Shown here piece by piece: positions 1-15,408 of a DNA stretch of 64,000 bases (position 1 is the first letter of the stretch; each line of letters starts with the position of its first letter). The DNA is from Streptomyces radicis (GTDB lineage: Bacteria > Actinomycetota > Actinomycetes > Streptomycetales > Streptomycetaceae). The notes beneath the pieces are model-generated. The model was not told the origin of the DNA. It worked only from the letters and a program-made list of their open reading frames with translations, and did not search any database. The DNA lies in assembly GCF_003626575.1 (NCBI RefSeq), contig NZ_RBDY01000008.1, positions 1 through 64,000 of the forward strand, read 5' to 3'. Made by a program: the position numbers and the translations under genes.

Positions 1-3000
1 GCCGTCGCGTCCGGTGGATTGCACGATCCGGTGGGTCTGGTCCCCTCCGCTGTCGAGCACCGTGCGTGCGGTGCCGTCGATGGTGACCAGGTGGGAGGTG
101 TCGTTGACGCGGAGGACGTCGCTGCCTGCGACGGTGTTGCCGTGGACGTCCATGAGCCGGGGCGTGCCGTTGGCGGGGGCCCACCAGCGGTACGCGGACC
201 GCAGGCCGCCCAGGGTGGGGTCGTTGCTGACCAGGTAGGTGGTGCCGTCCCTGACGACGAGGTGGTCGCCGCTGGCGAGGGGGGTGATGGTGCCGGGGAC
301 GGGGTTTTCCTCGGCGTCGACCAGGCGGAGGGGGTTGCCGGGGCCGGTGTCCAGGATCTGGAGGTCGCCGAGCGGTCCTCCGGTGAGTTGGGTGACGCGG
401 TGGTGGAAGGTGTCGTCGAGGGCGTGCTCGGTGGTGTGGTTGCCGGATTGGATGGTGACGGTGTTGTCGTCGGACCACGCGCGGTCCGAGATGTCCTGGC
501 CGCCCCGGTGGACGGTGGGGTGGCCGTCCGGGTCCAGGGGGTAGGCCCTGACGATGTCGCCGGGTGTGCCGTCGGGGTTCGGTGGCCGTACCGCGTCGTG
601 GGTGTGCGCTCCCGTGCTGTTGACGACCTGGCGTCCGACGTTGTCCACCTCGATCAGGAACATGTCGTCGGCCAGGCGTTCGACGCGTGCGCCCTCGAAG
701 GGGAGGCCGTTCGCGTCCACCACGTCCGGCAGGCCGCCGCCCGGCGGCAGGATCAGGGAGTAACCGGACAACGTGCCGTTCAGCGGCTCCATCGTCTCCA
801 TCGACGTCAGCGCGGGCCGGGCGGTCGCATAGGAGTTGTCCTGCGACCGCACGGTGTACCAGCCCTCGCCCAGCGGGGTGACGGTTGTCCCGGGTACGGG
901 GTGGTCGCCGGGTCCGAGCAGCCTCGGCGCGTTGTCGCCGGAGTCGACGAAGCGGAAGCCCGCCAAGGATCCCGTGGTGATCTCCAGCGTGCGGATGGGG
1001 GCGGCGCCGTCCGCCCCTTCGGCCGTCTCGGAGCTGGTGCGCACGGTGACATAGGGCGCCGGGGTCATGGCGCCGTCCGCCCCAAGACGGTCGGTGCGGA
1101 CCACGAACGGAGCGTGGTGGGTCTCGTCGAGGGGCAGCAGCGCCAGCTCGTTCGAGGCGTTCCCGTCACGTCCTGGCAGTGGCTCGACGTCGTAGTCGCT
1201 GAGCACTGCCCTGTTGAGGAGCACATGGCCGCGGCCGGGCACCTCGACCAGGAACTGGCCGTCCAGTTCCAGGGGGCGCACGGGCGCCCCGGGGAGCGGT
1301 GTCCCGTCGGGGCGGACCACGAAGGGCGTGTCGCTGCCGTGGGGGACGGCGAGGATGTTGCCGCCCAGGGGCCCGTCCGGGGTGCGGTGCGCGTAGCCGA
1401 GGAAGGTGCCGTCCGCCGCGAAGAAGGTGGCGACGGGGTAGTCGCCGTCCACGCGCAGGGCCGCGCCGTCCATCCAGAAGTCGTCGCTCGGGCCCGTGCG
1501 GTCGGTGCCGATGGGCAGGGCGACCAGGCGGTCCTGCGCGCCCGGCACCTGTACCACGGTGTGGGAGTGCCACATGTATGGCCCCAGCACGGCGCGTCCG
1601 ACTCCGGGTGCGTCGATCATGTTCAGCTCGGTGCCGAACGGCCTGAGGGTCACGCCCGCCACCGGAGCGCCGGTCTCGATGTGGATGACCTGGGCCGTCA
1701 CGGTGCCGTCGGGCAGCTCGGTCAGCTCGAAGCGGTATCCGGTGAACGAGTCACGGCCATCCCCAGGCCGCACGGTGGACTCCAATGTCCCGTCCAGGCG
1801 GTGGAACGTGGTCACCTCCGGGAGGGTGCGGATGACGGTGAGCCGTCCGTCGCTCTCCACGACGTTCGAGCCGGGCACGCTCCTCCCCCCCAAGCCGTTC
1901 TCGAAGTGGTTGTAGAGCGTCCCCCGGCCCGAGCCGCTCGTCGGCCAGGTGGCGATGCTGCCGGTGTCCCGGCCGGACAGGGGCGGCAGCTCGGCGTGGT
2001 TGCGGTAATCCCCGGAGCGGCTGTCGATGACCACCGGGTCACGGCCTGGGATGGTCACCAGGACGTCGGGGTAGCGGGGGTCGGCCCAGGCGTTCAGGTT
2101 CCGCACGTTGGCGCCGTTCACCGGACGCCCGTCGGCGGTGACGACCCAGGAGCCCGCGTCGTCGGCCTGGGTGGTCGAGCGCCATTCGTGGAGCTGGTGA
2201 CCGGCGAGCCGCCCATCGGTCATGGTGAGCCGGACCCCGCGGTAGTTGCCCGCCCAGTCGAAGAACAGGGTGGCGTTCGCCGCGCGGCCACTGATCCCGG
2301 CCGCGTCGGCGACCAGGGTGAATTCCCGCCGTAGTTCGCCCCCCGGGGTGAGCACGAAGGGATCGTCCCCGCGCAGCGGCAGGGCGGCCCAGCCGAAATG
2401 GGTGTTGCCCCAGTGGAGCTTCACCGCGTCGTGGGTGTGGGTGTGGGTGTCCTGGGTGTTGACGATGCCTGGGCGCTGGCGGGGGGTGTTGACGAGGTAG
2501 CCGCCGTTGTCGAGCGGTTTGGCCGTGGCGTTGGGTACGGGGGTGCCGTCGGGGCCGATGACGTGGGCTGTTCCGTCGTGAGCGATGTCGAGGTGGTTGC
2601 CGGGGCCCAGGGGGCCGCCGGGGTGTCGGGTGCTGGAGTCGATCAGGGTGCCGTCGGGGCTGTGGACGGTGTACGCGCCGGGGGTGTGGACCACGACGCG
2701 GTTGCCGCCGAACGTCGAGTGGACGTCGTCGCTGTGGAGGCGGCCGTCGCCGCGGAGGACGGCGTGGGTGTCGGCGTGGCCGGTGGGTGGGGCGAGGAAG
2801 AGGCCGGAGGGGTGTCCTTGGTCGTCGAGCAGGTTGACGGTGGGGGTGAGGCGGCCGGTGTCGTCCACGATGTGGGGGGTGTGGTCGCCGATGCGGACGA
2901 AGGTGCCGCGGTCGCCGAGGGGGGCGAGGGTGATTCCGTCGCCGGAGCTGTCGTGGATGACGAGGGGGCTGTCGGGGCGGTTGTTGGTGGGGACGGCGAT

Positions 3001-6000
3001 GAGGGGGGTGTGGTCGGGGCGGTGGATGAGCCAGCCGGTGTTGTCGGGGAGGCGGGTGACGTGGTCGTGGATGACGAGGGGGCTGTCGGGGCGGTTGTTG
3101 GTGGGGACGGCGATGAGGGGGGTGTGGTCGGGGCGGTGGATGAACCAGCCGGCGTTGTCGGGGAGGGGGGTGACGTGGGCCTGGGGGAGGAGGTTGCCGT
3201 CGTGGTCGGTGACGCGGGCGGTGTTGTCGCCGGTGATGGCGAGTGTGTGGTGTTCGTCGCCGGGGAGGCGGTGGAGGGTGGTGTGGTGGGTGCCGCGGGC
3301 GTCGTGGATGTGTGTGGTGGTGTCGGTGCGGTGGATGGCGAGGAGTCCCTCGTCGAGGAGCTCGACGTCGTGGGTGGGGGTGACGGTGTCGTTGAGGCGG
3401 ATGAGTTGGGGTGACCGGTCGGCTACGAGGGAGATGGCGTGGCCGGCGAGGGGGCCGTCGCGGTGGATGTGGAGGTTGGCGAGGAAGCGGCCGTCGTGGT
3501 CGTGGAAGGTGGTGGTGATGCCGGTGCGGATGGCGATGGAACGCTCGGTGATGCGGATGTGGTCGGTGGCGACGGGCTGGCCGTCGCGGGTGAGGGTGGG
3601 GGCGCCGCCGCCGGGCGGGGTGGTGAGGGTGGTGCCGGTGGGGTGGCCGTCGGGGCCGAAGAGCCTGACGGGGTGTGGTAGTTCGGTCAGCTCGACATCG
3701 CTGTCGCCCATGCCGTGGCGGGCCGGGCCCGGGACACCCGAGCCGTCGGCGGCGTCGGATCCGGGGCTGCCGGGGCGGGTGGCGTCGATGGTGTAGCGGA
3801 TGTCGGGGGCCATGAACACGGTGCGGCCGGTGTCGCCGGGAGGGAGCGGGACGTCGGACCGCCCCCTGTCGCCCAGCAGTTGGCGGCTCACCTCGACCTT
3901 GTCGACGTGGTCGAGCCTCATGAACTCGTCCGCGTCCACCTTGTCAAGGGCCGGCGCCGAGGGGCCGTCGGAACGGAACTGGCCGGTGGCGGGATCGTAG
4001 GCGGCGAACCGCTGCCCCGGGCCGAAGACGGCCACGAGGGCCGAGTCGCCGCCGGGCGGGATGTGGCGCACCACCCGGTCGGAGAGCCGCCCCAGGTCCG
4101 CGTCGCGCGGGAAGGGGTAGAACTGCCCGTCGGAGCGGGCCAGCGCGAGCACATCCGGCTCGCCGGGTCGCCCCGAGAGCCGCACCACCGTGTACGAGGA
4201 CCGGCCGTCGCCCGTGACCAGGTGAACGGTGTCTCCCTGCCGCACCAGGTACTCGCCGGAGTCCAGCACGGTGACGGTCGCCCCGTCCACGACGCGGCCG
4301 TTCTGGTCCCGCAGCCCCAGCGCGCCGTCGCCCGGGTCCACGACGCGGAAGCCGGTCAACGGCCCGTCGTCGATCTCCATGGTGCGCGTGGTGAACGCAT
4401 CGGAGCGCCCGTTCACCGCCTCGACGTGGCCGCCGCCAGGCCCGACCACGCCGGGGGTGCCGCTGACGGGAACGGCGGGCGTCGCCTGCGGCATGGCCGC
4501 CAGTGGCACGGTGCCCTGCTGGGCCGTGGGGAGGGGCGGCGGGGGCATGATGCTCTGCGCAGCGGGGGTGATGCCCTCCACCGAAACCAGGCCCGAGTTC
4601 GGGGCGCTGTCCGCCTCCCGCAGTGGCGGCGGGACGCTGTCGAACTCGGCACTGGCGCCGTCCGCGGCGCGGGGCGCGGGGGGTGGGACCGAGGCAGTGA
4701 TGCCGTCGGCGGTGGCGCCAGGCCGACTGGTCAGCGAGTTGAGGGCGACCGGCGGGGGGCCGCCGAGGGCCGGGGTGGTGACCGTGGGGGGCGCGACGGC
4801 CTGCGCGGGCGGGGTGAGTCCGTTGGCGGCCAGCGCGAGCGGCGTCACCGGGGGCGCGGAGGCGACCTCTCCGGCGATGTCGTCGAACCCGTTGGTGAGG
4901 TTTCCGTTGGTGAGGTTGACGTCGACGTGGCTCGCCGGGCCGACGTCGAAGGAGGCGGGGCTGGAGAGGGTGATGTCGTCGGCGCGGGTGTGGACGCCGG
5001 GGCCGGTGTCGACGGGGGCGAGGGGGTTGACGTCGCCGAAGTGGCGTGCGCTGGCGCCGGTCTGGGCGACGTCGGGGGGGCTGAGGGAGAGTCCCTGGTC
5101 GGCGAAGTGGCTGTGGAGAGAGGGTGCGGCGGTGACGTCGAGGTCGAGGGCCGCTTCGCTCGGGGGGAGGCGGTTGACGGCGGCGGGGGTGGTGAGGGGG
5201 GTGCTGACGGGAGGGGTGAGGTGCGTGCTGACGGCGGTGATGCTGGTGGGCAGGACGTTGGCGTTGGCGTGTGGGACGGCGACGGTGTCGCCGAGGACGG
5301 GCATGTCCGCGGTGTTGAACGCGGGCAAGTGGGTGGCGCTGGTCCCCGTGGGGGAGATGCCGGAGGCGTTGGCGCCGATATCGGAGCGGAGGGGGGAGAA
5401 CGCGCCCTGGTCGAGGTTGATGACGGCGTCGCCGCCGGCGGTGCCGGTGCCGTTGCCGACCAAGGTGTGGGTGGCCTGAGTGGGCGCGGGCGTCGGGGTG
5501 GGTGTGGGTGTGGGTGTGGGGGTGGCGACGTGGGCGGGAGCGCCGGTGGGGTTGGGGAGGTTGGTGGGGAGGTGGGCGAGGCCGTCGGTGGTGAACGCGT
5601 GCGCGGGATTGGGCACGGCCATCGAATTGCCCTGGTCGGCGAAGTGGAGGGAGAGGGGCTGGATGGGGCGGAGGTCGGCGAGGGAGTTGCCGGCGCCGGG
5701 GTCGGGGGCGGTGACCGGGTGGGAGGCGTTGTGGGTGCCGACGAAGCTGACGGGAGTGGTGGGCCGGGTGAGGGACAGGTCGGTGACGGAGGAGTGGGGG
5801 GAGGGGATGGGGGAGTGGATGGGTGCGGAGCGGGCGCCGTCTCCGATGAGGGGGACCACGGAGGTGTTGGCGGCGGTGAAGCGGCTGAGGGACAGGTCGG
5901 TGACGGAGGAGTTGGGGGAGGGAACGGGCGAGGTGCTGACGGGGGTGCCGGCGGCGGGGGTGATGGTGAAGGGGGTGTTATGGAGGCGCATGCCGTCGAC

Positions 6001-7266
6001 GCCGAGAGTGATGACGGGGGCATGGGAGATGTCGTTCCAGAAGTGCATGCCGCCGAAGAACTGGGCGTAGTGGCCCGCGCCCGGTTGGTAGCGGGCCATG
6101 AGGGCGACGTTGACCTGGGGGCGGCCCATGGGGTCGAAGCCGCTGATGGTGCGGATGTCGATGAGCTGGTTGCCGTGGAGGAAGGCGCCGGTGCGGTACT
6201 GGCCGAGGACGCCGCGGTTCCACAGGCTGATGCGGAAGGCGTTGCCGATGCCGCCGCCCATCTCGGCGGCGTTGACGGGGAGGAAGAGGGCCAGCGCGCC
6301 GCGTCCGGTGAAGTGGGCGGCGAAGTATCCGGCGAAGCCGTTCTTCCCGCCCATGCCGATGAAGATGGGGTTGTCGGCCCAGGCGCCGCCGGTGCGGGCG
6401 TGGAGGTAGCCGTCCTTGATGGTGTTGAAGATCTTCGGGACGGTGACGACGACGAAGTTCCTGAAGCCCGTCCAGGTGGCGTCGCCGACGTTGCGCATCA
6501 GCTGGGTGACGCTCCCGCCGCTCTTGGTCCAGGCGCCGGTGATGCGGGTGTTGGCGCCGCGGATGATGCCGCCGATGTTGATGCCCCGGGTGGTGGGGAT
6601 GATCATGCCGAAGATGGCGAGCATGAGGTCGGTGATATTGCCCCGGCCCGAGGTGAAGTCGATGATGCTCTTGACCAGGAGGACGGCGCTGAGGGCGATC
6701 AGGAGCAGGGCGGTGGGGCCGCCGAAGATGATGGCGGGAAGGATGAGGCCGATCACGAAGTAGGTGAGGAACTTCCAGAACTCCTCGCAGGGGTCGATCA
6801 TCGAGGAGATGCCGGAGGTGGCGGCGGAGACGACGCCGGCGGCGGTGGCGGCGGCTTCGTCGAGGGCGTCACCGGCGTTGCGCGCGATGGTCCGGTAGTT
6901 CTCGACGTCGGGGTCGTCCTCGTCCAGGCCCGCCGCGGCGCTCAGGGCGTTGTCGGCGATCTCCTGCTGCTCGATCATGACGAGGCGATAGGCCGACAGG
7001 GCGCTGTGGACATCACTGTGGGATTCGTGGAAGCTCTGGACGAAGTTGCGGACGCGTCTGTCCATCTTGTCGCGCAGGGCGTCGGCGGTTTCCCCGATGA
7101 AGTACTCGCTGTTCTCCTCCATCAGCGCGTCGAGGTCGCGATCGATCTCCTCGGCGAGGTCGACGATCTGTCCCTGGGCATCGAGGAGTTCCTTGAGCCG
7201 GTCGGGGTCTCCCGGAGTCGGGTCGCTGCTGAGGCCGAGCGCGCTCCAGTCCGGAGGACGAGGCAT
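1..7266 (-). CDS. Giant T7SS-associated repeat protein, C-terminus outside window
   Basis: The minus strand is open for 2422 codons from ATG at 7266 to base 1 with no stop, so the protein is C-terminally cut by the window. A Shine-Dalgarno-like GAAGGGAAG lies about 7 nt before the ATG. Residues 5-40 (WSALGLSSDPTPGDPDRL) resemble the helical T7SS signal domain found at the start of many actinobacterial polymorphic toxins. Residues 25-160 are predicted helical. A hydrophobic block lies at about 163-205, with a shorter one at 215-235. Residues 440-950 are Pro/Thr/Ser-rich and include a (TP)n run near 581-594. From about 960 to the edge a beta-type motif (DG-x-PVPGA-x-V-x-PL-x2-G-x-LV) recurs at least ten times. 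The gene is divergent from small WXG100-like genes and near an EccC ATPase, so it is probably a secreted substrate or surface protein. Its C-terminal activity, if any, cannot be seen. Confidence 0.8.
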   Translation of the reverse strand, partial: MPRPPDWSALGLSSDPTPGDPDRLKELLDAQGQIVDLAEEIDRDLDALMEENSEYFIGETADALRDKMDRRVRNFVQSFHESHSDVHSALSAYRLVMIEQQEIADNALSAAAGLDEDDPDVENYRTIARNAGDALDEAAATAAGVVSAATSGISSMIDPCEEFWKFLTYFVIGLILPAIIFGGPTALLLIALSAVLLVKSIIDFTSGRGNITDLMLAIFGMIIPTTRGINIGGIIRGANTRITGAWTKSGGSVTQLMRNVGDATWTGFRNFVVVTVPKIFNTIKDGYLHARTGGAWADNPIFIGMGGKNGFAGYFAAHFTGRGALALFLPVNAAEMGGGIGNAFRISLWNRGVLGQYRTGAFLHGNQLIDIRTISGFDPMGRPQVNVALMARYQPGAGHYAQFFGGMHFWNDISHAPVITLGVDGMRLHNTPFTITPAAGTPVSTSPVPSPNSSVTDLSLSRFTAANTSVVPLIGDGARSAPIHSPIPSPHSSVTDLSLTRPTTPVSFVGTHNASHPVTAPDPGAGNSLADLRPIQPLSLHFADQGNSMAVPNPAHAFTTDGLAHLPTNLPNPTGAPAHVATPTPTPTPTPTPAPTQATHTLVGNGTGTAGGDAVINLDQGAFSPLRSDIGANASGISPTGTSATHLPAFNTADMPVLGDTVAVPHANANVLPTSITAVSTHLTPPVSTPLTTPAAVNRLPPSEAALDLDVTAAPSLHSHFADQGLSLSPPDVAQTGASARHFGDVNPLAPVDTGPGVHTRADDITLSSPASFDVGPASHVDVNLTNGNLTNGFDDIAGEVASAPPVTPLALAANGLTPPAQAVAPPTVTTPALGGPPPVALNSLTSRPGATADGITASVPPPAPRAADGASAEFDSVPPPLREADSAPNSGLVSVEGITPAAQSIMPPPPLPTAQQGTVPLAAMPQATPAVPVSGTPGVVGPGGGHVEAVNGRSDAFTTRTMEIDDGPLTGFRVVDPGDGALGLRDQNGRVVDGATVTVLDSGEYLVRQGDTVHLVTGDGRSSYTVVRLSGRPGEPDVLALARSDGQFYPFPRDADLGRLSDRVVRHIPPGGDSALVAVFGPGQRFAAYDPATGQFRSDGPSAPALDKVDADEFMRLDHVDKVEVSRQLLGDRGRSDVPLPPGDTGRTVFMAPDIRYTIDATRPGSPGSDAADGSGVPGPARHGMGDSDVELTELPHPVRLFGPDGHPTGTTLTTPPGGGAPTLTRDGQPVATDHIRITERSIAIRTGITTTFHDHDGRFLANLHIHRDGPLAGHAISLVADRSPQLIRLNDTVTPTHDVELLDEGLLAIHRTDTTTHIHDARGTHHTTLHRLPGDEHHTLAITGDNTARVTDHDGNLLPQAHVTPLPDNAGWFIHRPDHTPLIAVPTNNRPDSPLVIHDHVTRLPDNTGWLIHRPDHTPLIAVPTNNRPDSPLVIHDSSGDGITLAPLGDRGTFVRIGDHTPHIVDDTGRLTPTVNLLDDQGHPSGLFLAPPTGHADTHAVLRGDGRLHSDDVHSTFGGNRVVVHTPGAYTVHSPDGTLIDSSTRHPGGPLGPGNHLDIAHDGTAHVIGPDGTPVPNATAKPLDNGGYLVNTPRQRPGIVNTQDTHTHTHDAVKLHWGNTHFGWAALPLRGDDPFVLTPGGELRREFTLVADAAGISGRAANATLFFDWAGNYRGVRLTMTDGRLAGHQLHEWRSTTQADDAGSWVVTADGRPVNGANVRNLNAWADPRYPDVLVTIPGRDPVVIDSRSGDYRNHAELPPLSGRDTGSIATWPTSGSGRGTLYNHFENGLGGRSVPGSNVVESDGRLTVIRTLPEVTTFHRLDGTLESTVRPGDGRDSFTGYRFELTELPDGTVTAQVIHIETGAPVAGVTLRPFGTELNMIDAPGVGRAVLGPYMWHSHTVVQVPGAQDRLVALPIGTDRTGPSDDFWMDGAALRVDGDYPVATFFAADGTFLGYAHRTPDGPLGGNILAVPHGSDTPFVVRPDGTPLPGAPVRPLELDGQFLVEVPGRGHVLLNRAVLSDYDVEPLPGRDGNASNELALLPLDETHHAPFVVRTDRLGADGAMTPAPYVTVRTSSETAEGADGAAPIRTLEITTGSLAGFRFVDSGDNAPRLLGPGDHPVPGTTVTPLGEGWYTVRSQDNSYATARPALTSMETMEPLNGTLSGYSLILPPGGGLPDVVDANGLPFEGARVERLADDMFLIEVDNVGRQVVNSTGAHTHDAVRPPNPDGTPGDIVRAYPLDPDGHPTVHRGGQDISDRAWSDDNTVTIQSGNHTTEHALDDTFHHRVTQLTGGPLGDLQILDTGPGNPLRLVDAEENPVPGTITPLASGDHLVVRDGTTYLVSNDPTLGGLRSAYRWWAPANGTPRLMDVHGNTVAGSDVLRVNDTSHLVTIDGTARTVLDSGGDQTHRIVQSTGRDG
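2951..3178 (-). repeat. Tandem 114-nt repeat inside the giant gene
   Basis: Two 114-nt units lie head to tail. The first roughly 80 nt of each are identical and the rest is close. They encode 38-residue units containing VPTNNRPDSPLVIHD and HRPDHTPLIA (residues about 1363-1439 of the giant protein). The near-identity at nucleotide level points to a recent duplication in an otherwise diverged repeat protein. Confidence 0.85.
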
Positions 7267-7531
7267 GACCGGCTTCCCTTCTCTCGGCGACACGGCGACA
7301 CGGCGACCACCGCACGACGTGCTCGCCTTCTTCGCCCTTGCACATCCACGGCGCCGCGAGGGGACCGCCCGCGGCCAGCTGCGGGCGGCCCCTCGCACCT
7401 TCTACGCGCGAGAAGGCCGGGGGGTTCACCAGATCCACGCGGGGGCTGAACCTTCCGCGGGGCTGGTGCGTGGAGGGGGTGAGGGCGTGCCCCGCGGGGC
7501 CGCGAACGCAACCGGCAAGGAAGGAGGCGCC
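7267..7531. promoter_or_regulatory. Divergent intergenic region with two hairpins
   Basis: This 265-bp gap separates the giant gene (leftward) from the WXG-like cluster (rightward) and should hold both promoters. It contains an inverted repeat with arms 7356-7372 and 7381-7396 (one bulged base, 8-nt loop). A second, perfect 6-bp hairpin CCTTCT/AGAAGG spans 7398-7416. I could not pick convincing -35/-10 boxes. A terminator between divergent genes would be unexpected, so the hairpins may be operators or leader structures. Confidence 0.45.
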
Positions 7532-8497
7532 ATGCCCGATTTCGCCATGGACTACGACAAGCTCTACGCCATGCAGCGAGGGCTGCACGGCTTGGCCGAG
7601 CGGGCCGAAACCGCGGGCGGTCTCGGTGCGTGGGAGGAGATCGGCGAAGGCACCGCCACCTCCAACGAGTCGATCTTCGGCAACTACCAACTCGCCTACG
7701 AGTTCCAGCTGTTCTACGGGAAGTCGAAGGTGCGGATCGACGAGGGCAAGGAGAAGCTCGAGAGCTTCGGCGACATGTTCGGCGGCGTCGCCGACGCGCT
7801 GCTCCAGCAGGACGCCATGGTCGCCGGGCAGTTCACGACCATGGCGGGCCAGACGATCTTCGACCGGTGGCTCTCGGAGCACGAGGCGGTCGAGGACTGG
7901 GACCGGCGGAACGAGGAGTGGAACAACTACATCGAGGAGATCGGGGCCGCCGAGTACTTCGAGGAGCACCCGGACGCGAACGTCTGGGAGGTCTGTTCCG
8001 CGGAGGACGCCCCCGAGTGGTGCAAGACGTGGGAGGGCGACTACGGCGACCGTCCCGTGCAGCCGGGTGAGCGGCCGGACGAGCCGCCGGAGCACCCGCC
8101 GAGCCGCATGGAGATCACCGATGACGACGGCGGCAAGATCGAGTTCACGGTGCAGTACGACGAGGACTACAACATCCTCCAGGAGAAGAGCACCGTCACG
8201 ACAGCCAACGGCGACACCGTCACCACCACCGTCGACTACGACGGACCGCCAAGTCCGAGCGACCCCGACAACCCGGACAACTCCGTCGACACCCGCGACT
8301 ACACGGTGACCACCGTCGCCCCGGACGGCAGCAAGTCCACGGTCGAGGTGGAGATCAGCGACGACGGCCAGACCCGGACGGAGACCAACACCACCTGGGA
8401 CGAGGACGGCGACGAGGAGGTCGAGGTCACGGAGTTCGTGCGTTCCGACGCCGAGGACGAGATCTGGAAGGAGGTGGAGGACGACGACGACGACTGA
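7532..8497 (+). CDS. T7SS-associated protein with acidic C-terminal tail
   Basis: This is a 321-residue protein starting at ATG 7532 behind a strong AAGGAGG. The N-terminal 130 residues look helical and WXG100-like in size (YDKLYAMQRGLHGLAERAET; later FGGVADALLQQDAMVAGQF). The remainder, from about residue 180, is Asp/Glu/Thr-rich with alternating beta-type repeats such as DGSKSTVEVEISDDGQT, and ends in DDDDD. It is first in a rightward cluster with two small WXG100-like genes (gaps of 53 and 7 nt), so it is likely made and exported with them. I recognise no enzyme motif. It could be a substrate, a chaperone-like partner or an immunity protein for the divergent giant protein; none of these is shown by sequence alone. 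Confidence 0.75.
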   Translation: MPDFAMDYDKLYAMQRGLHGLAERAETAGGLGAWEEIGEGTATSNESIFGNYQLAYEFQLFYGKSKVRIDEGKEKLESFGDMFGGVADALLQQDAMVAGQFTTMAGQTIFDRWLSEHEAVEDWDRRNEEWNNYIEEIGAAEYFEEHPDANVWEVCSAEDAPEWCKTWEGDYGDRPVQPGERPDEPPEHPPSRMEITDDDGGKIEFTVQYDEDYNILQEKSTVTTANGDTVTTTVDYDGPPSPSDPDNPDNSVDTRDYTVTTVAPDGSKSTVEVEISDDGQTRTETNTTWDEDGDEEVEVTEFVRSDAEDEIWKEVEDDDDD

Positions 8498-8550: not shown

Positions 8551-8856
8551 ATGCCCAACATCAGCATCACCTTCGATGACGTCGACGCGGCGGCCGCGGC
8601 GATGGACAACTCCAGGACCGAGGTCATCGAGCCGGCGGTGGACGCCGCCAAGCTGGCGATCGACGAAACCCTTGGCCGGGATCTCGTCCTCCAGGATACC
8701 GAGGCGGCGATCACCGACCAGTACAACATCCTCCACGGCCAGCTCGTCGACCTCGCCCTTGCGATCAAGAGCTTCGCCGATCAGTTCCTCAACATCAAGG
8801 ACGGCATGATCAAGTTCGACCAGCAGTACGCGGAGCTCATCCGCAACCCGAAGTGA
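8551..8856 (+). CDS. Small WXG100-like protein
   Basis: This is a 101-residue, almost entirely helical protein starting at ATG 8551 with AGGAG about 8 nt upstream. Its size and amphipathic helices (VDAAAAAMDNSRTEVIEPAV and LVDLALAIKSFADQFLNI) match the WXG100/ESAT-6 class. A canonical W-x-G turn is not present. It lies 7 nt upstream of another small WXG-like gene, the usual pairing for heterodimeric T7SS substrates. The role as a small substrate or carrier is inferred from size, pairing and the nearby EccC ATPase. Confidence 0.65.
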   Translation: MPNISITFDDVDAAAAAMDNSRTEVIEPAVDAAKLAIDETLGRDLVLQDTEAAITDQYNILHGQLVDLALAIKSFADQFLNIKDGMIKFDQQYAELIRNPK

Positions 8857-8863
8857 GGTCGGC

Positions 8864-9301
8864 ATGCCAGATATTTCCGCCGATTACGCCGGGATCGTGG
8901 ATGCCGCGGGCAAGCTCAGCACGACGTGCAACATCATCGTGCCCGAGATCTACAGCCTCATGGGCACGGTCGGCACGCTCCTCGACGAGGGCCTCTACCT
9001 GGAGCAGGCGAGCCCCGCGCTGAAGACCGCCTACGAGGAGTTCAGCAAGTCCATGCAGGCGGCGGCCGCCGGCCTCCAGAACTGGGCCAACCTCCTCACC
9101 GCCATCAAGGATGCCTTCGAGAACAACGACGCGGAGCTGTTCGCCATCACCCTCTCCGCCATCGACGGCGAGGGTGGCTTCGAGGTGACCGCGAACGAGG
9201 TGACGACCACGCCCGGCGAGGTGCCCAAGTGGGACAGCCAGCACGAGCTGAACGGCACGCCCGTCGACTGGAACGAGGATCGCACCCGGCTCGAACCCTG
9301 A
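8864..9301 (+). CDS. WXG100-like T7SS substrate candidate
   Basis: This is a 145-residue protein. Residues 1-100 form a helical hairpin typical of WXG100 proteins, with NWANLLTAI in place of the W-x-G turn. A 40-residue polar tail follows. It is co-directional with and 7 nt from the preceding small helical gene, suggesting translational coupling and possible heterodimer formation. The start ATG 8864 has a weak GAGGT upstream that overlaps the previous stop. A 17-bp perfect hairpin follows, closing this transcription unit. Family assignment rests on length, helix pattern and context rather than a strict motif. Confidence 0.65.
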   Translation: MPDISADYAGIVDAAGKLSTTCNIIVPEIYSLMGTVGTLLDEGLYLEQASPALKTAYEEFSKSMQAAAAGLQNWANLLTAIKDAFENNDAELFAITLSAIDGEGGFEVTANEVTTTPGEVPKWDSQHELNGTPVDWNEDRTRLEP

Positions 9302-9394: not shown

Positions 9395-12300
9395 TCACGT
9401 GAGCACGGTCAGCGGCACCTGGACCGCCAGCAGACGACCCGAGGTGTCCGCGGTCCAGGCCCGTCCCGGAGTGGTGGCCGGGCGCACGTGCTCCGGCATC
9501 AGCCTGGCGCCGATGAGCTCGCCCTCGTTGAGGTTCTTCGGGCCCAGCAGCAGCCCGCGCCGCCCGCGGCGCGCGACGCCGATCCAGCCCATCGTGGTCA
9601 TGCCGTCCGCGGGCCCGGCCAGCAGCAGCCCGAGGCCCCGGTCGCGCCCGGCCGAGCCGACCTTGCGCAGCTGCGGGTCCAGCTTGCTGTTGACCAGCAG
9701 CTCGGCGTCGTCCACGACCACCACGGCGGGCTTGTCGCCCACGGCCGCCAGCGCCTCCTCCAGCATCGCCGCGCTCGGCTCGGGATCGTCGATCACGTGG
9801 GCCAGGCCGTGCGCGGACAGCCGCCGCAGCGGCGAATCCCTCGGGGTGACCACCACGAGCGCGGTGCCGCCCATCACCAGCGAGACGCACATCGCCGCGA
9901 GCGCCGTCGACCGTCCGCTGTGCGGCGGCCCGGCGACGAGGAACGAGCCTGAGCCGTCGGCGAAGTCGTAGCCGAGCACTTCGCCGTCGTCGCCGCCGAC
10001 GCCGAGCAGCGCCCACAGCGGCCTGCGCTGCTCGTCGGCGATCCGGTCGGCGGCCTCCTGGAAGCCGACGACCTCGGGCAGTGGGGCCACGGTGAACGGC
10101 CGCGCCTCGTCGGCCACCCCGCCGTCCCTGGCCGTCGTCTGCCGCCCGATGGCGCGCAGCGCGTCCGCCTGGTCCCCGCCCTTGGCCAGCGCGGACAGCG
10201 GCAGCGTGAGGATCTGCCCCTCCACGCCGCCGGGGGTGGACCAGCCGCGCCCTGGCGGCACGTTCTCCGGTACGTTCCTGCGGTTGACGCCGACGATGGC
10301 GAAGTCCATCCGGTCCGTCTGGCGCAGCAGGATCCGCCGGTCGTTGTGCTGCCCGGCCCGGCCGCTGAGCAGCATCCGCTCGGATGTGGCGATCACATGC
10401 ATGCCCGCCGTGACGCCCTCCCGCAGCAGCCGCAGCAGGTCGTCGGTGCTCCGCCCGCCGTCCTGCTTCTCCAGCATGGACACCAGGGCGTCCCAGCCGT
10501 CGATCAGGATCAGCAGGTGCGCGGGGCGTTCCGGCCTGGGCAGCTTGGCCCGCAGCTCGGTCAGGGAGTTGACGTCGTGCCGGGCGAGCAGCGCCTGGCG
10601 GTCGGTCAGCTCCTCCAGCAGCCGCCGCACCAGCCGGGCCAGGCGCTCCCCGTCGTGCCGGTGCACCACCGCGCCGCAGTGCGGCAGCGCCTCCAGGGCC
10701 GAAAGGCCGCCGCCGGCCGCGTCGATGCCGTAGATGTGCAGCTGGTCGGTCGTCACATGCAGGGCGGCCGAGCCCGCGATGGTGCGCAGCGTCTGGGTGC
10801 GGCCCGAGCGCGGCGCGCCGATCACATAGAGGTGGCCGAACGACTCGAAGACGACATGCCCGAGCCGCTGGTCCTGGTGGGCGGGCAGGTCGAAGAAGAC
10901 ATACGGCACCGGCTCGAGCCTCAGGGCGCCGGGGCGCGGGTCGCCGTCCGGGGCCGTCAGCGATATCGCCTCGGGCAGCGGCGGCAGCCAGGGGCGCGGC
11001 TGCGGTGCGAAGTCCTCCAGGGCGGAGACCGCCGCCCGCACGGCGTTGACCAGCGCGGTCAGGTCCGTGGGCGGATCGGTCGCCGCCTCGTCCCCTTCCC
11101 CGCCGTCCTTCTCCCCCTCGGCCGCCTCCTCGGCCTCCTCGGCCTCCGGCTGGGCGCCCTCGTGGATGACCCGGGGCGGCGGCAGCGGGTGGCCCAGCCG
11201 TTCCAGGCTCAGCTCGGCGCCGCGCACCGTGCGGGGCACCAGCTGGGCGGCGGGCGCCGCACCGTCGTCGGCGGGGCGCTCGGCGCCGACCCAGGCGGTC
11301 TGGAACGGCATGGGCGGCCCGTCGCCCCGCCTGACCAGGGCCCGGCCCGGGGTCGAGGGCGAGATCGCCGCCGCGGTGGGCGCGTTGATGATGTCCGTGC
11401 TCTCCGTGCGGTCGGTGACCCGGAGCGCGATGCGGAGGTTGGTGTTGGCGCGGATCTCGTTGGAGACCGCGCCCGCCGGACGCTGCGTGGCGAGCAGCAG
11501 GTGCAGGCCCAGCGAACGGCCGCGCTGTGCCAGGCTGATCAACCCGGGCACGAACTCCACCAGCTCGCGGACCAGCGTGGCGAACTCGTCGATGACCAGC
11601 AGCAGCCGGGGCAGCGGCGGCAGCTCGGGCTCCCGCGCGCGCTTGGCCCGGTACTCGCGGTGGTCCTTGACCCCCACGTCGGCCAGCAGCTGCTCGCGGC
11701 GGCGCAGCTCGGCGTCGAGCGACGCCAGCGCGCGCTGCACCAGATGGCCGTCCAGGTCGGTGATCATCCCCAGCGTGTGGGGGAGTTCGGCGCACTCGCG
11801 GAACGCGCTGCCGCCCTTGTAGTCGATGAGCACGAACGTCAGCTCGTCCGGCCTGTTCAACGCCGCGAGCGAGGCGATGATGGTCTGGAGCAGCTCGGAC
11901 TTGCCCGATCCCGTGGTGCCGCCGATCAGGCCGTGCGGCCCGTCGGCCACCAGGTCGAGCGCGGCGGTGCCCTCGTAGCCCGCGCCCACCGGGAACGCGG
12001 TGCTCGCGGGCAGCCGCTCCCAGCGGCGCGCCAGGGCCGCGGGGTCGGGGGGCTCCTGGCCCAGCAGCGGCAGCAGCCGCACCTCGGCGGGCATCCCGGC
12101 GTCGGACTCCACGGTGACGTCGCGCAGCGGGGCCAGGGCGCGGGCGGCCTGCTCGCACCACGCGGGATCCACCTGGTCGGCGCGGATGCCGGAGACCGTG
12201 GGGGCGCCCGAGACGCGCATCGTCAGCCGGTTCCCCGTGGCGGTGACGACGGCGTTGCACTCCTCGGGCAGCAGGTGCTCGCGCTCGTCGAGGCAGAGGC

Positions 12301-14092
12301 TGTAGATCCGCATCGGCGGGCCCTGGGCCAGGATGCTGACCACGCCGGGCACGTCGCGCAGCCGGTAGGCGCCGTCCAGGATCACCAGGATGTCCGGCTC
12401 GCCGGGGGCGACGGCGTTCCCCGTGTTGTGCCCGGCGCCGGCGGCCCGCGCCTGGACGTCCGCGTACAGCTCGCTGACCCGCCTCGCGGTGGAGTCGGGG
12501 TCGGTGCCGATGGACACCAGCGGGGCGCCCGCGGCGCCGGGGCGGGCGGGGCGCAGATGGGTCAGCCAGCGGGCCCACGCCCACTCGGCGACGTGCTCCT
12601 CGTCGGTGAGGATGACGACGCGCAGGTCGCGGGGGCTGTGCAGGACGGCGGCCTGGGCGACGGCCCAACGGGCCACGGCGCGCGCGGTCCTGTCGGTGCC
12701 GGTGAGTCCGATCACGCCGAACATGGGCAGCTCGACGCCGATGGGCACGTCGGCGAGCCGCCAGTGGACGGTGCGGTGGTTGCTCTCCCGCGCCCCGTCG
12801 GTGATGCGCTTGAGCGAGGCGCGGGTCACCGTGCCCAGGCGCAGGGACAGGTAGTCGCCGTGGTGGCGGCGGCGTTCCCACAGCTGGTGGCCGGGGCCCG
12901 TGGCGGTGAGCAGCACGGCCGCGGGATCGGGGGACGCGGTGTTGCGCTGGTGGCGCTCGTCCACGGTGGCGCGGCGCATCTCCCGCTCCAGGGCGGCGCG
13001 GCGCAGCCGGAAGCGGCGCACCTTCTCCGCGTGCTGCTTGCGGTTGCTGCGGCGGCCCATCAGCCAGTTGGCCACGGCCATCAGCGGGGTGAAGGCGATG
13101 AGGATGATGAAGAAGAAGGACCGGAAGAGCGTCATCATGGCCAGGCCCATGATCATCGGCGAGATCATCAGGAGGAACGGGAAAGGGCGGGGGCCCGGGG
13201 GTCCCGGGGGCCCCGGCAGGTTGAGGTCCTCGGCGTCCAGGTGCGGCAGGATGCGCGGCGGGCGGCTGTACTCCAGGGTGTGCCCGTCGCCCGACGGCTT
13301 GACGGCGGCGTCCGCCTCGAAACGGGGCCCGAGCCGCAGCAGATGGTCGCCAAGGGCCAGGTCGGCGAACTCCGGCCAGTGCCACGAGCCGTCGTCGGGC
13401 GGCGGCCGGTGGCCCGGCGGCGGCAGCGGCGGGCGCAGCGGCAGCCCGTCCTCGCCCGCGGGCGGTGGCTCCGCGCTGTGCCCGCCGGGGCCGCCGTCCC
13501 TGGGGCCCGCGGGCTCCTCGTCGGTGAGCGGCGTGCCGGTCTCGGGGTCCACCGGCGGGGGAGGGGTGAGGCTGCGCAGGCCGCACCACCGCCGGTCGGC
13601 GTCCTCGGGCAGCCGGAAGCTGGCCGAGCCGTCCGTGTGCACCGTGATCCAGGTGCCGGATTCGGGCGTCCAGGTCTCCTCGGCCGCCTCCACGGGCGCG
13701 CCGGGGTCGTCGGGGTCGGGCACCGCCAGGCGTATCGCGCAGCGGCGGTCGGTGCCGACCTCGTAGCTGCCGGGACCCAGCAGCCACACCTGTCCGGCGT
13801 TCGGCCCTGAGACGTGCCGCAGTTCGAGCAGCACCGGGTCGGAGTCCGGGGGGCGCCAGGCGTGGGCGGCGTCATCGGTGAGCGGGGCGGGGGCGCCGAG
13901 GCCGAGCAGCGCGCCGTCGCGGACGCCGCAGGCGCCGAGCGGCGTCCCTGAGTCGAGCGGCCGTTCGCCGAGATAGAGGCGAGGGGTGGCCAGCGCGGCG
14001 GCGAGCTCGCCGACCGTGGCGTCGCCCGGCAGGTCGAGCAGGTGGTCCGTGTGCCGCCCCTGGGGGTCGGCGGTGGTCACGGTGAGCTTCAC
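9395..14092 (-). CDS. eccC: EccC/EssC-type FtsK/SpoIIIE ATPase of a type VII secretion system
   Basis: This is the motor ATPase of WXG100 secretion, 1565 residues from GTG 14092. Residues 1-68 look like a ubiquitin/YukD-type beta-grasp domain and about 80-165 like an FHA domain (LGPGSYEVGTDRRC). A hydrophobic double segment lies near 307-345. Three FtsK-type ATPase domains follow. D1 has an intact Walker A GGTTGSGKS (about 722-731) and Walker B LLLVIDEF. D2 (GAPRSGRT, about 1090) and D3 (GPPHSGRS, about 1390) have Arg in place of the Walker lysine. The FHA-bearing layout is closer to EssC of Firmicutes than to mycobacterial EccC. Upstream is a coupled one-pass membrane protein and ECF sigma factor. 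A weak Shine-Dalgarno leaves the exact start uncertain, but no other plausible start codon fits the beta-grasp domain. Confidence 0.92.
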   Translation of the reverse strand: MKLTVTTADPQGRHTDHLLDLPGDATVGELAAALATPRLYLGERPLDSGTPLGACGVRDGALLGLGAPAPLTDDAAHAWRPPDSDPVLLELRHVSGPNAGQVWLLGPGSYEVGTDRRCAIRLAVPDPDDPGAPVEAAEETWTPESGTWITVHTDGSASFRLPEDADRRWCGLRSLTPPPPVDPETGTPLTDEEPAGPRDGGPGGHSAEPPPAGEDGLPLRPPLPPPGHRPPPDDGSWHWPEFADLALGDHLLRLGPRFEADAAVKPSGDGHTLEYSRPPRILPHLDAEDLNLPGPPGPPGPRPFPFLLMISPMIMGLAMMTLFRSFFFIILIAFTPLMAVANWLMGRRSNRKQHAEKVRRFRLRRAALEREMRRATVDERHQRNTASPDPAAVLLTATGPGHQLWERRRHHGDYLSLRLGTVTRASLKRITDGARESNHRTVHWRLADVPIGVELPMFGVIGLTGTDRTARAVARWAVAQAAVLHSPRDLRVVILTDEEHVAEWAWARWLTHLRPARPGAAGAPLVSIGTDPDSTARRVSELYADVQARAAGAGHNTGNAVAPGEPDILVILDGAYRLRDVPGVVSILAQGPPMRIYSLCLDEREHLLPEECNAVVTATGNRLTMRVSGAPTVSGIRADQVDPAWCEQAARALAPLRDVTVESDAGMPAEVRLLPLLGQEPPDPAALARRWERLPASTAFPVGAGYEGTAALDLVADGPHGLIGGTTGSGKSELLQTIIASLAALNRPDELTFVLIDYKGGSAFRECAELPHTLGMITDLDGHLVQRALASLDAELRRREQLLADVGVKDHREYRAKRAREPELPPLPRLLLVIDEFATLVRELVEFVPGLISLAQRGRSLGLHLLLATQRPAGAVSNEIRANTNLRIALRVTDRTESTDIINAPTAAAISPSTPGRALVRRGDGPPMPFQTAWVGAERPADDGAAPAAQLVPRTVRGAELSLERLGHPLPPPRVIHEGAQPEAEEAEEAAEGEKDGGEGDEAATDPPTDLTALVNAVRAAVSALEDFAPQPRPWLPPLPEAISLTAPDGDPRPGALRLEPVPYVFFDLPAHQDQRLGHVVFESFGHLYVIGAPRSGRTQTLRTIAGSAALHVTTDQLHIYGIDAAGGGLSALEALPHCGAVVHRHDGERLARLVRRLLEELTDRQALLARHDVNSLTELRAKLPRPERPAHLLILIDGWDALVSMLEKQDGGRSTDDLLRLLREGVTAGMHVIATSERMLLSGRAGQHNDRRILLRQTDRMDFAIVGVNRRNVPENVPPGRGWSTPGGVEGQILTLPLSALAKGGDQADALRAIGRQTTARDGGVADEARPFTVAPLPEVVGFQEAADRIADEQRRPLWALLGVGGDDGEVLGYDFADGSGSFLVAGPPHSGRSTALAAMCVSLVMGGTALVVVTPRDSPLRRLSAHGLAHVIDDPEPSAAMLEEALAAVGDKPAVVVVDDAELLVNSKLDPQLRKVGSAGRDRGLGLLLAGPADGMTTMGWIGVARRGRRGLLLGPKNLNEGELIGARLMPEHVRPATTPGRAWTADTSGRLLAVQVPLTVLT

Positions 14093-14178
14093 GGGCAGTC
14101 CAACGGTGAGTCCAACGGGGGGTCCGACGGGCAGTCGGAGGCGAGGCGTCGGGAGACCAGGGGTCGGGAGAGCAGGGG

Positions 14179-15408
14179 TCAGGAACGCACCGGGTGGGCG
14201 GAGGGGGCGGGGGCCGGCCGGGTCTCCTCCTCCGCGGCGGCGGGCGCCTCGGCCTCCTCCTCGAACTCGTCCTCCCGCTCGGGGGCCGGGGGCCGGGGAG
14301 CGGCGGCCGCGGGGGCGGTCGGCAGCTCCTCGGTCTCCTCGTCGGCCCCCTCCTCCTCGTCCAGCTCGGCGAACGCGCGGACCGAGCTGATCGCGTCGTC
14401 CCCGCCGGGCCCTGGCGGCAGCACGGGCGGGATCGAGGGGAGCACCCTGGCGAGGGCGCGGCTGAGGGCGTTGCCCTCGGTGATCAACGGCGTGCCCACC
14501 ACGGAGACCTGCCCCGACCTGCCGGTCAGCAGGGTCCGCGCATAGCCGCGGCCCTCGCCGAGCAGCAGCAGCCTCAGCTCGGGGAACTCCTCGGGCGGCG
14601 CGGTCAGTTCGGGCGGCAGCGGGGAGGGCAGCTCGGCGCACACCAGCACGGGGGCGAGCCCGGCCCTCGGCCTGAGCTGGTCGGCCGCCCGGTGCGCGGC
14701 GCGGATCGGGAGCCCGTCGAACGCCCGGTGCACGCCCTCCGCCACGACCACCATGCCCTCGGGCAGCCGGGCGTCCAGCTGGGCCGCCACGGACTGGTGC
14801 AGCGCCACGCCGGAACGCCGTTCGCCCTCCACGCAGACCATCGGCGGGCCCGCCGCCAGGTCGAGGAACGCGCACTGCCCCTCGACCTCGCCGACCGCCA
14901 CCAGCACCGGGAGCGCCAGGTCGGGCACCGGCACCACGGGCGGCAGGTCGGCGCGGTCCGCGCTCCAGTGGTCGGGGCCTTCGCCCTCGGCGATCCACCA
15001 GGGCTCGCGCTCGGGGGCCTCCAGGTCGGGCCCGGTGACCAGCACGGTCACCGTCCGCTCGGCGACCAGCACGGCGTAGGGCCTCGGCCCGCCGGGCCCC
15101 GCGGCCTCCCGGGCGGCGGCCACGGCCCGTTCGGCGTCGCGCCAGGTCGCGGGCGCCCGCAGGCCGTGCACCAGGACGCGCAGCGAACGCCGGTGGCGCG
15201 TCCACGCCTTCACCGGAGCGGCGAAGGCGTGCGCGGTGATCGCGCACTCGCGGCGCAGGCGCGCCCATGCGGCACTCCAGCCGCCGAGCCGCATGGCCAC
15301 GGCCCTGATCAGCAGGAAGACCACGAGCAGCACGGCGAGGAAGCCGAGCACGCGGAAGATGGTGTCCCGATGGCGGTCGAGGAACTCGAAGGGGTCGGTG
15401 GTCCTCAT
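14179..15408 (-). CDS. Single-pass membrane protein of the T7SS operon
   Basis: This is a 409-residue protein with one hydrophobic segment at residues 18-38 (FRVLGFLAVLLVVFLLIRAV) and a large, probably cytoplasmic, remainder. It ends in an Ala/Pro/Glu-rich tail. Its ATG overlaps the stop of the sigma factor gene (ATGA), and it is followed after 86 bp by eccC, so the three probably form one operon. I recognise no known Ecc component; it is not clearly EccB, EccD or EccE. It could anchor or gate the ATPase, or regulate the sigma factor, but it lacks the zinc-binding signature of a ZAS anti-sigma factor. Function unknown. Confidence 0.8.
   Translation of the reverse strand: MRTTDPFEFLDRHRDTIFRVLGFLAVLLVVFLLIRAVAMRLGGWSAAWARLRRECAITAHAFAAPVKAWTRHRRSLRVLVHGLRAPATWRDAERAVAAAREAAGPGGPRPYAVLVAERTVTVLVTGPDLEAPEREPWWIAEGEGPDHWSADRADLPPVVPVPDLALPVLVAVGEVEGQCAFLDLAAGPPMVCVEGERRSGVALHQSVAAQLDARLPEGMVVVAEGVHRAFDGLPIRAAHRAADQLRPRAGLAPVLVCAELPSPLPPELTAPPEEFPELRLLLLGEGRGYARTLLTGRSGQVSVVGTPLITEGNALSRALARVLPSIPPVLPPGPGGDDAISSVRAFAELDEEEGADEETEELPTAPAAAAPRPPAPEREDEFEEEAEAPAAAEEETRPAPAPSAHPVRS

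What the first reader, a model, noticed from the sequence alone, without database searches (positions are those of the whole stretch)
1..7266. Giant T7SS-linked protein of at least 2422 residues divergent from WXG100-like genes
A single open minus-strand frame covers 7.3 kb and leaves the window. It combines a T7SS-signal-like helical N-terminus, a membrane segment at about 163-205 and a very long repeat region. Proteins of this build near an EccC gene are candidates for polymorphic toxins, surface fibres or new secretion substrates.
Basis: partly seen in the sequence, partly recalled or inferred. Interest (0 to 1): 0.8.

Follow-up and report, generated by a model that had tools for sequence, protein, structure and literature searches.

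The report
Giant repeat protein beside T7SS genes
A Streptomyces gene that runs off the end of this contig encodes an exceptionally large protein, about 9,000 amino acids or more, with a type VII secretion-like start and a long chain of cysteine-free repeats, in a conserved gene set that looks built to handle it.

Summary
In detail: window 7266..1 (-) is one open frame of 2,422 codons, and position 1 is a contig end. The rest of the gene lies on three other contigs of the same genome: C61 and C59 are open over their whole length in the same repeat protein, and C27 holds the C-terminus. Together they give about 9,100 residues or more, with gaps. A single-contig Streptomyces genome has an intact 15,831-residue orthologue in the same gene order; the three closest relatives have frames of 4,003-4,099 aa. 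The locus is conserved in several actinomycete genera: sigma factor, membrane protein, EssC-like ATPase, WXG-like genes, acidic partner, divergent giant, beta-helix/EccA-like ATPase. The N-terminus belongs with the Pfam T7SS_signal domain (though this copy is below threshold) and is shared with Rhs toxins of the same genome. The C-terminal ~1,000 residues are conserved, and the next gene abuts or overlaps the stop codon. That leaves no room for a variable toxin plus immunity gene, so the classical polymorphic-toxin reading is not supported here. Best reading: a dedicated type VII-like cargo, an extracellular beta-repeat stalk with a membrane-active end. Some relatives carry enzyme-like domains. 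Secretion and function are inferred, not shown.

The parts
1..7266 (-). N-terminal 2,422 residues of the giant protein; gene continues on contigs C61, C59 and C27 of the same genome
   Evidence: open frame; contig end; continuation
6502..7266 (-). residues 1-255: helical T7SS-signal-like region with the DW..DPTPGDP motif plus hydrophobic segment
   Evidence: translation; alignment A1; PF21725 in 10 of 14 members, no match for the window's own copy
6652..6780 (-). hydrophobic segment, residues 163-205
   Evidence: Kyte-Doolittle windows 1.99 at 163 and 2.36 at 179
19..4335 (-). first repeat stretch, residues 978-2416: about 56-residue beta unit, 13 copies at domain E < 0.01
   Evidence: iterative profile; AlphaFold2 all-beta model of window 1897-3459
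7532..8497 (+). acidic partner gene, 321 aa (called orf315 in the calls), conserved neighbour
   Evidence: translation; nothing above Pfam's cut-off; in 74 of 78 loci
8551..8856 (+). WXG100-like gene A (101 aa)
   Evidence: no Pfam match on its own; its iterated profile hits an upstream ORF in 75 of 78 loci
8864..9301 (+). WXG100-like gene B (145 aa)
   Evidence: PF06013 E 0.0011, below cut-off; 4 of 10 family members match at E <= 0.01, best 1.3e-8
9395..14190 (-). EssC/EccC-like FtsK-type ATPase (start codon not determined; upper limit approximate)
   Evidence: FtsK_SpoIIIE 7.9e-58; TIGR03928 2.1e-152, 509 of 778 bits needed; 62 of 65 loci
14179..15408 (-). membrane protein of 409 aa with one N-terminal hydrophobic stretch (read by eye), conserved neighbour
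   Evidence: no Pfam match; 54 of 56 loci
15405..16055 (-). sigma-70 family factor (regions 2 and 4)
   Evidence: Pfam; 47 of 56 loci

Best explanation
It is the N-terminal part of a single giant gene (about 9,100 residues or more here, 15,831 in a fully assembled relative) that is the dedicated cargo of a type VII-like secretion locus. Steps supported by sequence: a T7SS-signal-like N-terminus; a hydrophobic segment; tens of diverged all-beta units without cysteine; a conserved ~900-residue beta-rich part followed by long helices; and a neighbour set of EssC-like ATPase, WXG-like proteins and beta-helix/EccA-like AAA protein. Steps inferred: the WXG-like and acidic proteins bind the N-terminus; the EssC-like ATPase threads the chain out unfolded (no cysteines means no disulfides to trap it); the EccA-like AAA protein acts as its cytosolic handling factor; outside, the repeats fold into a long stalk or shell; and the conserved C-terminal helices meet or enter a membrane. 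In some relatives enzyme-like domains ride on the same frame, so the stalk can serve as a carrier; in this strain it has grown by duplicating modules.
For: One gene: only one giant N-terminus and one giant C-terminus were found in the genome, while C59 and C61 are open end to end. C59 and C27 share exactly 127 nt at their ends. The intact orthologue of 15,831 aa lies on one contig with the same gene order. T7SS link: PF21725 in 10 of 14 members and in three of three Rhs toxins of this genome scanned, and neighbour counts. Extracellular repeat protein: 1 Cys and 48 Lys in 9,200 residues, 0 Cys in 6,789 repeat residues; 2 Cys in 15,831; all-beta models. Conserved C-terminus: alignment of 24 relatives, C27 matches its profile at 7.6e-274, long helices at the end. 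Coupling: in 35 of 38 loci the beta-helix frame can start within 158 nt of the giant's stop, in 24 of them overlapping it. Carrier role in relatives: ART, weak DXD glycosyltransferase and zincin-like matches.
Against: No expression or secretion data. No EccB or EccD in the locus; both were found only elsewhere in the genome, so the machine may be incomplete or may borrow parts. In 8 of the 78 loci the ATPase hit is on the opposite strand from the usual arrangement (L137, L179-L184, L188), so the order is not uniform. The window's own N-terminus has no PF21725 match at E <= 0.01, and profile comparison with the WXG-like proteins failed (prob 0.9%). The two models have modest confidence (pLDDT 77.5 and 79.6); Foldseek's query-normalised TM is 0.17 or less and VIA-align Z 5.4 or less, so 'stalk' versus 'shell' is open. 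Only one window above 1.6 on the hydropathy scale was found on C27, so membrane entry of the C-terminal helices is a guess. Twelve of 43 frames examined lack the C-terminal module (L148 among them looks broken), so it is not universal. dN/dS above 1 between modules could also mean relaxed constraint.
Confidence: 0.5

Rival explanations
1. Purely structural or adhesive surface fibre: exported and kept on the hyphal surface, holding cells to a substrate or to each other, without any effector role. The C-terminal helices would be an anchor.
For: Repeat units run through the whole middle of the 15,831-aa orthologue with no gap above 371 aa, and no recognised enzyme was found in the window's pieces; acidic, Cys-free composition; a ricin-type lectin gene follows in this strain and in G308.
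Against: No adhesin or sortase-type signature in Pfam for the four pieces nor in NCBIfam, which was run only on C8 and 659 residues of C27; no LPxTG. Relatives carry toxin-like enzyme domains behind the same N-terminus, and the N-terminus is shared with Rhs toxins.
Confidence: 0.27
2. Classical stalked polymorphic toxin: T7SS-exported, variable C-terminal toxin, immunity gene next to it.
For: Same N-terminal domain as Rhs toxins of the same genome, one with a deaminase end; relatives L174 and G085 end in a Scabin-like ART; 12 of 43 frames have another C-terminus; published giant multi-toxin proteins exist in Streptomyces (PMC3482391, passages).
Against: The last ~1,000 residues are conserved over several genera in most complete frames, and the next gene is the conserved beta-helix/AAA gene within 158 nt in 35 of 38 loci, L174 included, so there is no room for an immunity gene directly behind. 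No Pfam toxin domain in C8, C59, C61 or C27.
Confidence: 0.15
3. Spurious or decaying reading: a long frame that is open because stop codons are rare in GC-rich DNA, swollen by repeat duplication or misassembly.
For: Antisense frames over the same DNA are also long; dN/dS between super-modules is 1.16-1.52; contigs break in the gene.
Against: Orthologues in many genera with conserved ends and neighbours; codon-position GC pattern; orthologous comparison L112/L113 gives dN/dS 0.12 (N-terminus) and 0.51 (repeats); intact 15,831-aa frame in a single-contig genome.
Confidence: 0.03

Closest known systems
Giant multi-toxin actinobacterial proteins of Zhang et al. 2012 (SACTE_5178, 13,652 aa; PMC3482391, passages seen)
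   Same: Streptomyces, more than 10,000 residues; some relatives of the window's gene also carry ART and peptidase-like domains.
   Different: The paper's giants are described by several toxin domains; none was found in the four pieces of the window's gene. The 15,831-aa orthologue was not scanned with Pfam, but repeat units fill it with no gap above 371 aa between them. Whether SACTE_5178 has this N-terminus or locus was not tested.
Rhs toxins with T7SS_signal of the same genome (L200-L202)
   Same: N-terminal DW..DPTPGDP motif and T7SS_signal/WXG100-type helices.
   Different: About 1,500 aa, RHS repeats and DUF6531, differing C-terminal ends. No sequence homology to the giant's repeats or C-terminus by profile comparison (prob 1% or less).
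Type VIIb (EssC) and type VIIa (EccC/EccA) secretion systems
   Same: FtsK-type ATPase closest to EssC, EccA-like AAA domain, WXG100-like small proteins.
   Different: EssC and EccA models are below their equivalog cut-offs; the AAA part is joined to a right-handed beta-helix; no EccB or EccD in the locus.
YD-shell proteins (Rhs cores, teneurins, TcC) as a fold lead
   Same: First five Foldseek hits for the C-terminal model are YD-shell proteins, best E 8.6e-10.
   Different: TM-scores of these five are 0.05-0.08; VIA-align best Z 5.4 (OspA) and 5.2 (teneurin, 43 residues); no RHS match in Pfam.

Membership tests
T7SS substrate with Pfam T7SS_signal (PF21725) | Match to the T7SS_signal profile at the N-terminus | tested here: inconclusive
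   10 of 14 members match at E <= 0.01, best 2.3e-8; the window's own copy does not
T7SS substrate with Pfam T7SS_signal (PF21725) | Type VII genes next to it | tested here: met
   EssC-like ATPase in 62 of 65, WXG-like in 75 of 78 loci
T7SS substrate with Pfam T7SS_signal (PF21725) | Export depends on the type VII ATPase | not testable with these tools
   needs a deletion strain
Polymorphic toxin system | Variable C-terminal toxin domain | tested here: not met
   C-terminal module conserved in 24 aligned relatives and in this gene (7.6e-274); no toxin domain in Pfam. Against: 12 of 43 frames have another end, two of those looked at with an ART
Polymorphic toxin system | Immunity gene directly downstream | tested here: not met
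   Next gene is beta-helix/AAA within 158 nt in 35 of 38 loci; in this strain its ATG overlaps the giant's stop
Rhs/YD-repeat protein | RHS/YD repeat sequence profile | tested here: not met
   No RHS_repeat or TEN_YD match; hhalign against own Rhs prob 1% or less
Rhs/YD-repeat protein | YD-shell fold | tested here: inconclusive
   Foldseek E to 8.6e-10 but TM 0.05-0.08; VIA Z 5.2 over 43 residues
Canonical type VIIa (ESX) locus | EccB and EccD in the locus | tested here: not met
   Both found only on contigs C17 and C4; other components not searched
Type VIIb EssC | TIGR03928 equivalog score | tested here: not met
   509 bits against 778 needed; best-scoring of the type VII ATPase models
EccA | TIGR03922 over its whole length | tested here: not met
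   AAA part only, positions 264-548 of 557, 235 bits against 467; N-terminal part is a beta-helix

The most novel reading that the evidence does not exclude
A dedicated type VII-like machine, with its own sigma factor and its own beta-helix/EccA handling ATPase, exists to export one Cys-free polypeptide of up to about 16,000 residues that makes a whole extracellular structure (fibre or shell) from a single chain. Its repeats diversify under positive selection, and its conserved C-terminus inserts into membranes.
Probability: 0.3. Interest if true: 0.88.

Novelty: new variant of a known kind. Interest (0 to 1): 0.68.

Why it matters
Giant actinobacterial proteins with toxin domains are in print (PMC3482391, passages). 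In my eight searches of the held open-access library (listings cut at 10-15 papers, titles and abstract starts only) I saw no description of this locus, of its beta-helix/EccA fusion, or of an all-repeat giant of this size tied to type VII genes. If the cargo is exported, it is an extreme test of how a type VII ATPase handles a polypeptide of 9,000-16,000 residues. A smaller orthologue of about 2,800 aa sits on a plasmid of Streptomyces clavuligerus ATCC 27064, so the question can be tested directly.

Tried and rejected
Polymorphic toxin with immunity gene: rejected for this copy (conserved end, no room downstream). Rhs repeats: no sequence support; fold comparison inconclusive (no VIA row reaches Z 6). 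Embedded enzyme in the window's gene: no Pfam match at E <= 0.01 apart from sub-threshold CarboxypepD_reg (0.0071) and Big_1 (0.0075). The single HExxH on C27 was not taken as a zincin site: a rough hand estimate from composition puts the chance number near 0.8, and the only one in G308 lies elsewhere. The window's repeat units were aligned but not searched against solved structures; the N-terminal and C-terminal profiles were, with no relative. Profile links between the giant's N-terminus and the WXG-like or acidic partner proteins failed; acidic partner against WXG-like was weak (prob 9%). A first neighbour count missed ATPase hits seen and was replaced by the profile-based count, which accepts a hit anywhere on the right side of the giant, on either strand. 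L190 had no N-terminal hit and was left out (78 of 79 loci). One search printed only the first three profile hits per protein, so I count from it only the 12 of 43 without a meaningful match; the 43 include the C27 piece and three G-handle proteins.

Papers: PMC3482391 passages only; PMC11573180 passages only; all others only as search listings with the start of the abstract. The DW..DPTPGDP motif as a mark of type VII substrates and the cytosolic role of EccA are recalled and come from no call; the Pfam matches do.

Full report
WHAT IS THERE. The minus-strand frame 7266..1 is open for 2,422 codons and leaves the window. The window is G000:C8:1-64000 of a 7.57-Mb genome in 81 contigs, so position 1 is a contig end. 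The genus is Streptomyces, inferred because 'same genus' genomes G089 and G056 hold contigs of exactly the lengths of named Streptomyces records (L136, 68,465 bp; L124, 252,412 bp).

THE REST OF THE GENE. A search of the own genome with the frame found repeat homology on contigs C59 (8,336 bp) and C61 (5,371 bp); each is open in one frame over its whole length, 2,778 and 1,789 codons. A protein search found a further hit at the end of contig C27; its frame runs 2,211 codons to a stop. Only one giant N-terminus and one giant C-terminus were found in the genome (the other three N-terminal places are Rhs proteins), so the fragments without start or stop most simply belong to one gene. C59 and C27 share exactly 127 nt at their ends, which looks like an assembly-graph edge, and C61's first 127 nt recur inside C59. 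Order C8-C61-C59-C27 follows by elimination; gaps remain. The sum after removing overlaps is about 9,100 residues or more.

INTACT RELATIVES. With a 14-row N-terminal profile, 38 of 392 Streptomyces genomes match at E <= 1e-20 (some match only the helical part). One of them, G308, an 8.6-Mb single-contig assembly, has an intact frame of 15,892 codons; from the conserved start it is 15,831 residues, with the same N-terminus and the same C-terminal module (5.6e-251). Its neighbours are those of the window: sigma factor (60% identity), membrane protein (56%), EssC-like ATPase (71%), two WXG-like genes (50%, 57%), acidic partner (44%), beta-helix (74%) and AAA (82%), lectin (35%). The three closest relatives by N-terminus (S. 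zhaozhouensis, S. sedi, Streptomyces sp. NBRC 109706; 60-61%) have open frames of 4,099, 4,078 and 4,003 aa. Of the 39 frames over 1,500 aa that end inside the fetched loci, 31 are 2,300-3,200 aa, but 34 of 78 frames are cut by the locus end, so long ones are under-counted. G085, G088 and G112 have 5,574, 6,412 and 6,288.

ANATOMY. Residues 1-255 are a T7SS-signal-like region with a strongly hydrophobic segment. From about residue 978 to the C-terminal module, a ~56-residue core unit recurs: 13, 18, 22 and 3 copies on C8, C61, C59 and C27, and 89 in G308 at domain E < 0.01. At E < 0.1 G308 has 99 units, with no gap above 371 residues between them. C59 holds two super-modules about 1,380 residues apart, 66% and 59% identical to the one on C8 over 1,172 and 1,466 columns. 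The four pieces have 1 Cys and 48 Lys in 9,200 residues; the repeat part has 0 Cys in 6,789 and net charge -351. G308 has 2 Cys in 15,831 residues. AlphaFold2 gives an all-beta model for window 1897-3459 (pLDDT 77.5, pTM 0.62, 4 sequences). For the last 1,180 residues of the S. griseoviridis orthologue it gives about 900 residues of mostly beta strands followed by long helices (pLDDT 79.6, pTM 0.73, 24 sequences). Foldseek ranks Rhs and teneurin shells first for the C-terminal model (best E 8.6e-10; TcC eighth), but TM-scores of the first five are 0.05-0.08 and VIA-align tops out at Z 5.4, so a shell fold is a lead, not a result. For the repeat model the hits are mixed, beta-propellers and YD shells, with VIA Z at most 4.6. 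The repeats and the start of the C-terminal module are related by profile (prob 89%, E 2e-6). Neither relates to RHS repeats.

SELECTION. Between super-modules of this gene dN/dS is 1.16-1.52 in four comparisons. The same method gives 0.12 for the N-terminus, 0.51 for the repeats and 0.44 for the last 300 codons between orthologues L112 and L113, and 0.7 and 0.66 for the window's N-terminus and C-terminal part against L114. The modules have diverged fast, by relaxed or positive selection; codon bias makes the absolute values unsafe.

THE LOCUS. In the 78 loci with an N-terminal hit, counted where enough sequence is held: EssC-like ATPase 62 of 65, WXG-like genes 75 of 78 (one ORF in 40 loci, two in 34, none on the expected strand in 4), acidic partner 74 of 78, membrane protein 54 of 56, sigma factor 47 of 56, beta-helix gene downstream 34 of 38, AAA part 15 of 20. 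In 8 loci, mostly distant relatives (L137, L179-L184, L188), the ATPase lies in the other orientation. The beta-helix frame can start within 158 nt of the giant's stop in 35 of 38 loci and overlaps it in 24; of the three exceptions, L119 and L177 have runs of N in the giant and L187's giant frame is short for a reason I did not examine. The ATPase scores best with EssC (TIGR03928) but below cut-off, and the AAA part matches EccA only over its ATPase half. EccB and EccD occur in this genome only on contigs C17 and C4. N-terminal relatives occur in Embleya, Kitasatospora, Actinacidiphila, Planotetraspora, Nonomuraea, Sphaerisporangium, Kribbella, Catenuloplanes and Dactylosporangium.

TOXIN OR NOT. 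The N-terminal domain is shared with three Rhs toxins of the same genome. Some relatives carry enzyme-like domains: a Scabin-like ART at the end of L174 and G085, two weak DXD glycosyltransferase matches in G085 (23.1 and 21.7 bits, cut-off 23), zincin-like matches in G088. In the window's gene no such domain was found in C8, C27, C59 or C61. Its C-terminal module is conserved (C27: 7.6e-274 to the 24-row profile; though 12 of 43 frames have other ends) and there is no room for an immunity gene directly behind. It therefore does not meet two defining features of polymorphic toxin systems, though it may still work as a long-reach carrier.

MECHANISM. Best reading: T7SS-type export of an unfolded, cysteine-free chain by the EssC-like ATPase with WXG-like partners and a beta-helix/EccA-like handling ATPase, then folding outside into a stalk or shell whose conserved end meets a membrane. 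The anatomy and gene neighbourhood are shown; export, folding and function are inferred.

KNOWN OR NEW. Zhang et al. 2012 report a Streptomyces toxin of 13,652 aa (SACTE_5178) with several toxin domains (PMC3482391, passages). Whether it belongs here was not tested. I saw no description of this locus in eight searches of the held open-access library, judged from capped listings. I rate it a new variant of a known kind.

Noticed in passing
L214-L216 (G308:C1:1375712-1423207, minus strand): Intact 15,831-residue orthologue in a single-contig Streptomyces genome, with about 99 beta units and the same gene order.
   Followed up: yes
L109/L110 (G085) and L174:9986-18484: Giants of the same N-terminal family that end in a Scabin-like ADP-ribosyltransferase domain; G085 also has two weak DXD glycosyltransferase matches; a beta-helix gene follows L174 directly.
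   Followed up: partly
L106:2-12682 (G088): A 6,412-aa giant with this C-terminal module also has zincin-like metallopeptidase matches (M6 6e-8, M57 1e-5).
   Followed up: partly
L208:12220-20769 (S. clavuligerus ATCC 27064 plasmid pCLA1, NZ_CP027859.1): Relative of about 2,800 aa (C-terminal query 26% identical over 97%) on a 1.8-Mb plasmid; 0 Cys. The plasmid gene table lists no feature there.
   Followed up: partly
L031:10310-12625 (-): Protein with an N-terminal right-handed beta-helix fused to an EccA/SpoVK-like AAA domain, ATG overlapping the giant's stop; 74-82% identical in G308 while the giant is about 30-43% in its aligned parts.
   Followed up: partly
L200, L201, L202: Three Rhs proteins of the same genome with T7SS_signal N-termini; one ends in an XOO_2897-like deaminase domain.
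   Followed up: partly
window 7532-8497 (+): Acidic partner protein, conserved beside the giant; weak profile similarity of its N-terminus to the WXG-like protein (prob 9%).
   Followed up: partly
window 1-7449 (+): Long antisense frames (777 and 1,244 aa) over the giant gene: shadow frames of GC-rich DNA.
   Followed up: no
L189, L190 (Microbacteriaceae): Weak N-terminal relatives outside the main group (E 2e-7 and 2e-4); L189 has no ATPase or beta-helix/AAA neighbour in the stretch held.
   Followed up: no
L012, L013 (contigs C60, C62): Short contigs of the same genome that look like modular polyketide synthase frames (read by eye), running off the contig ends.
   Followed up: no
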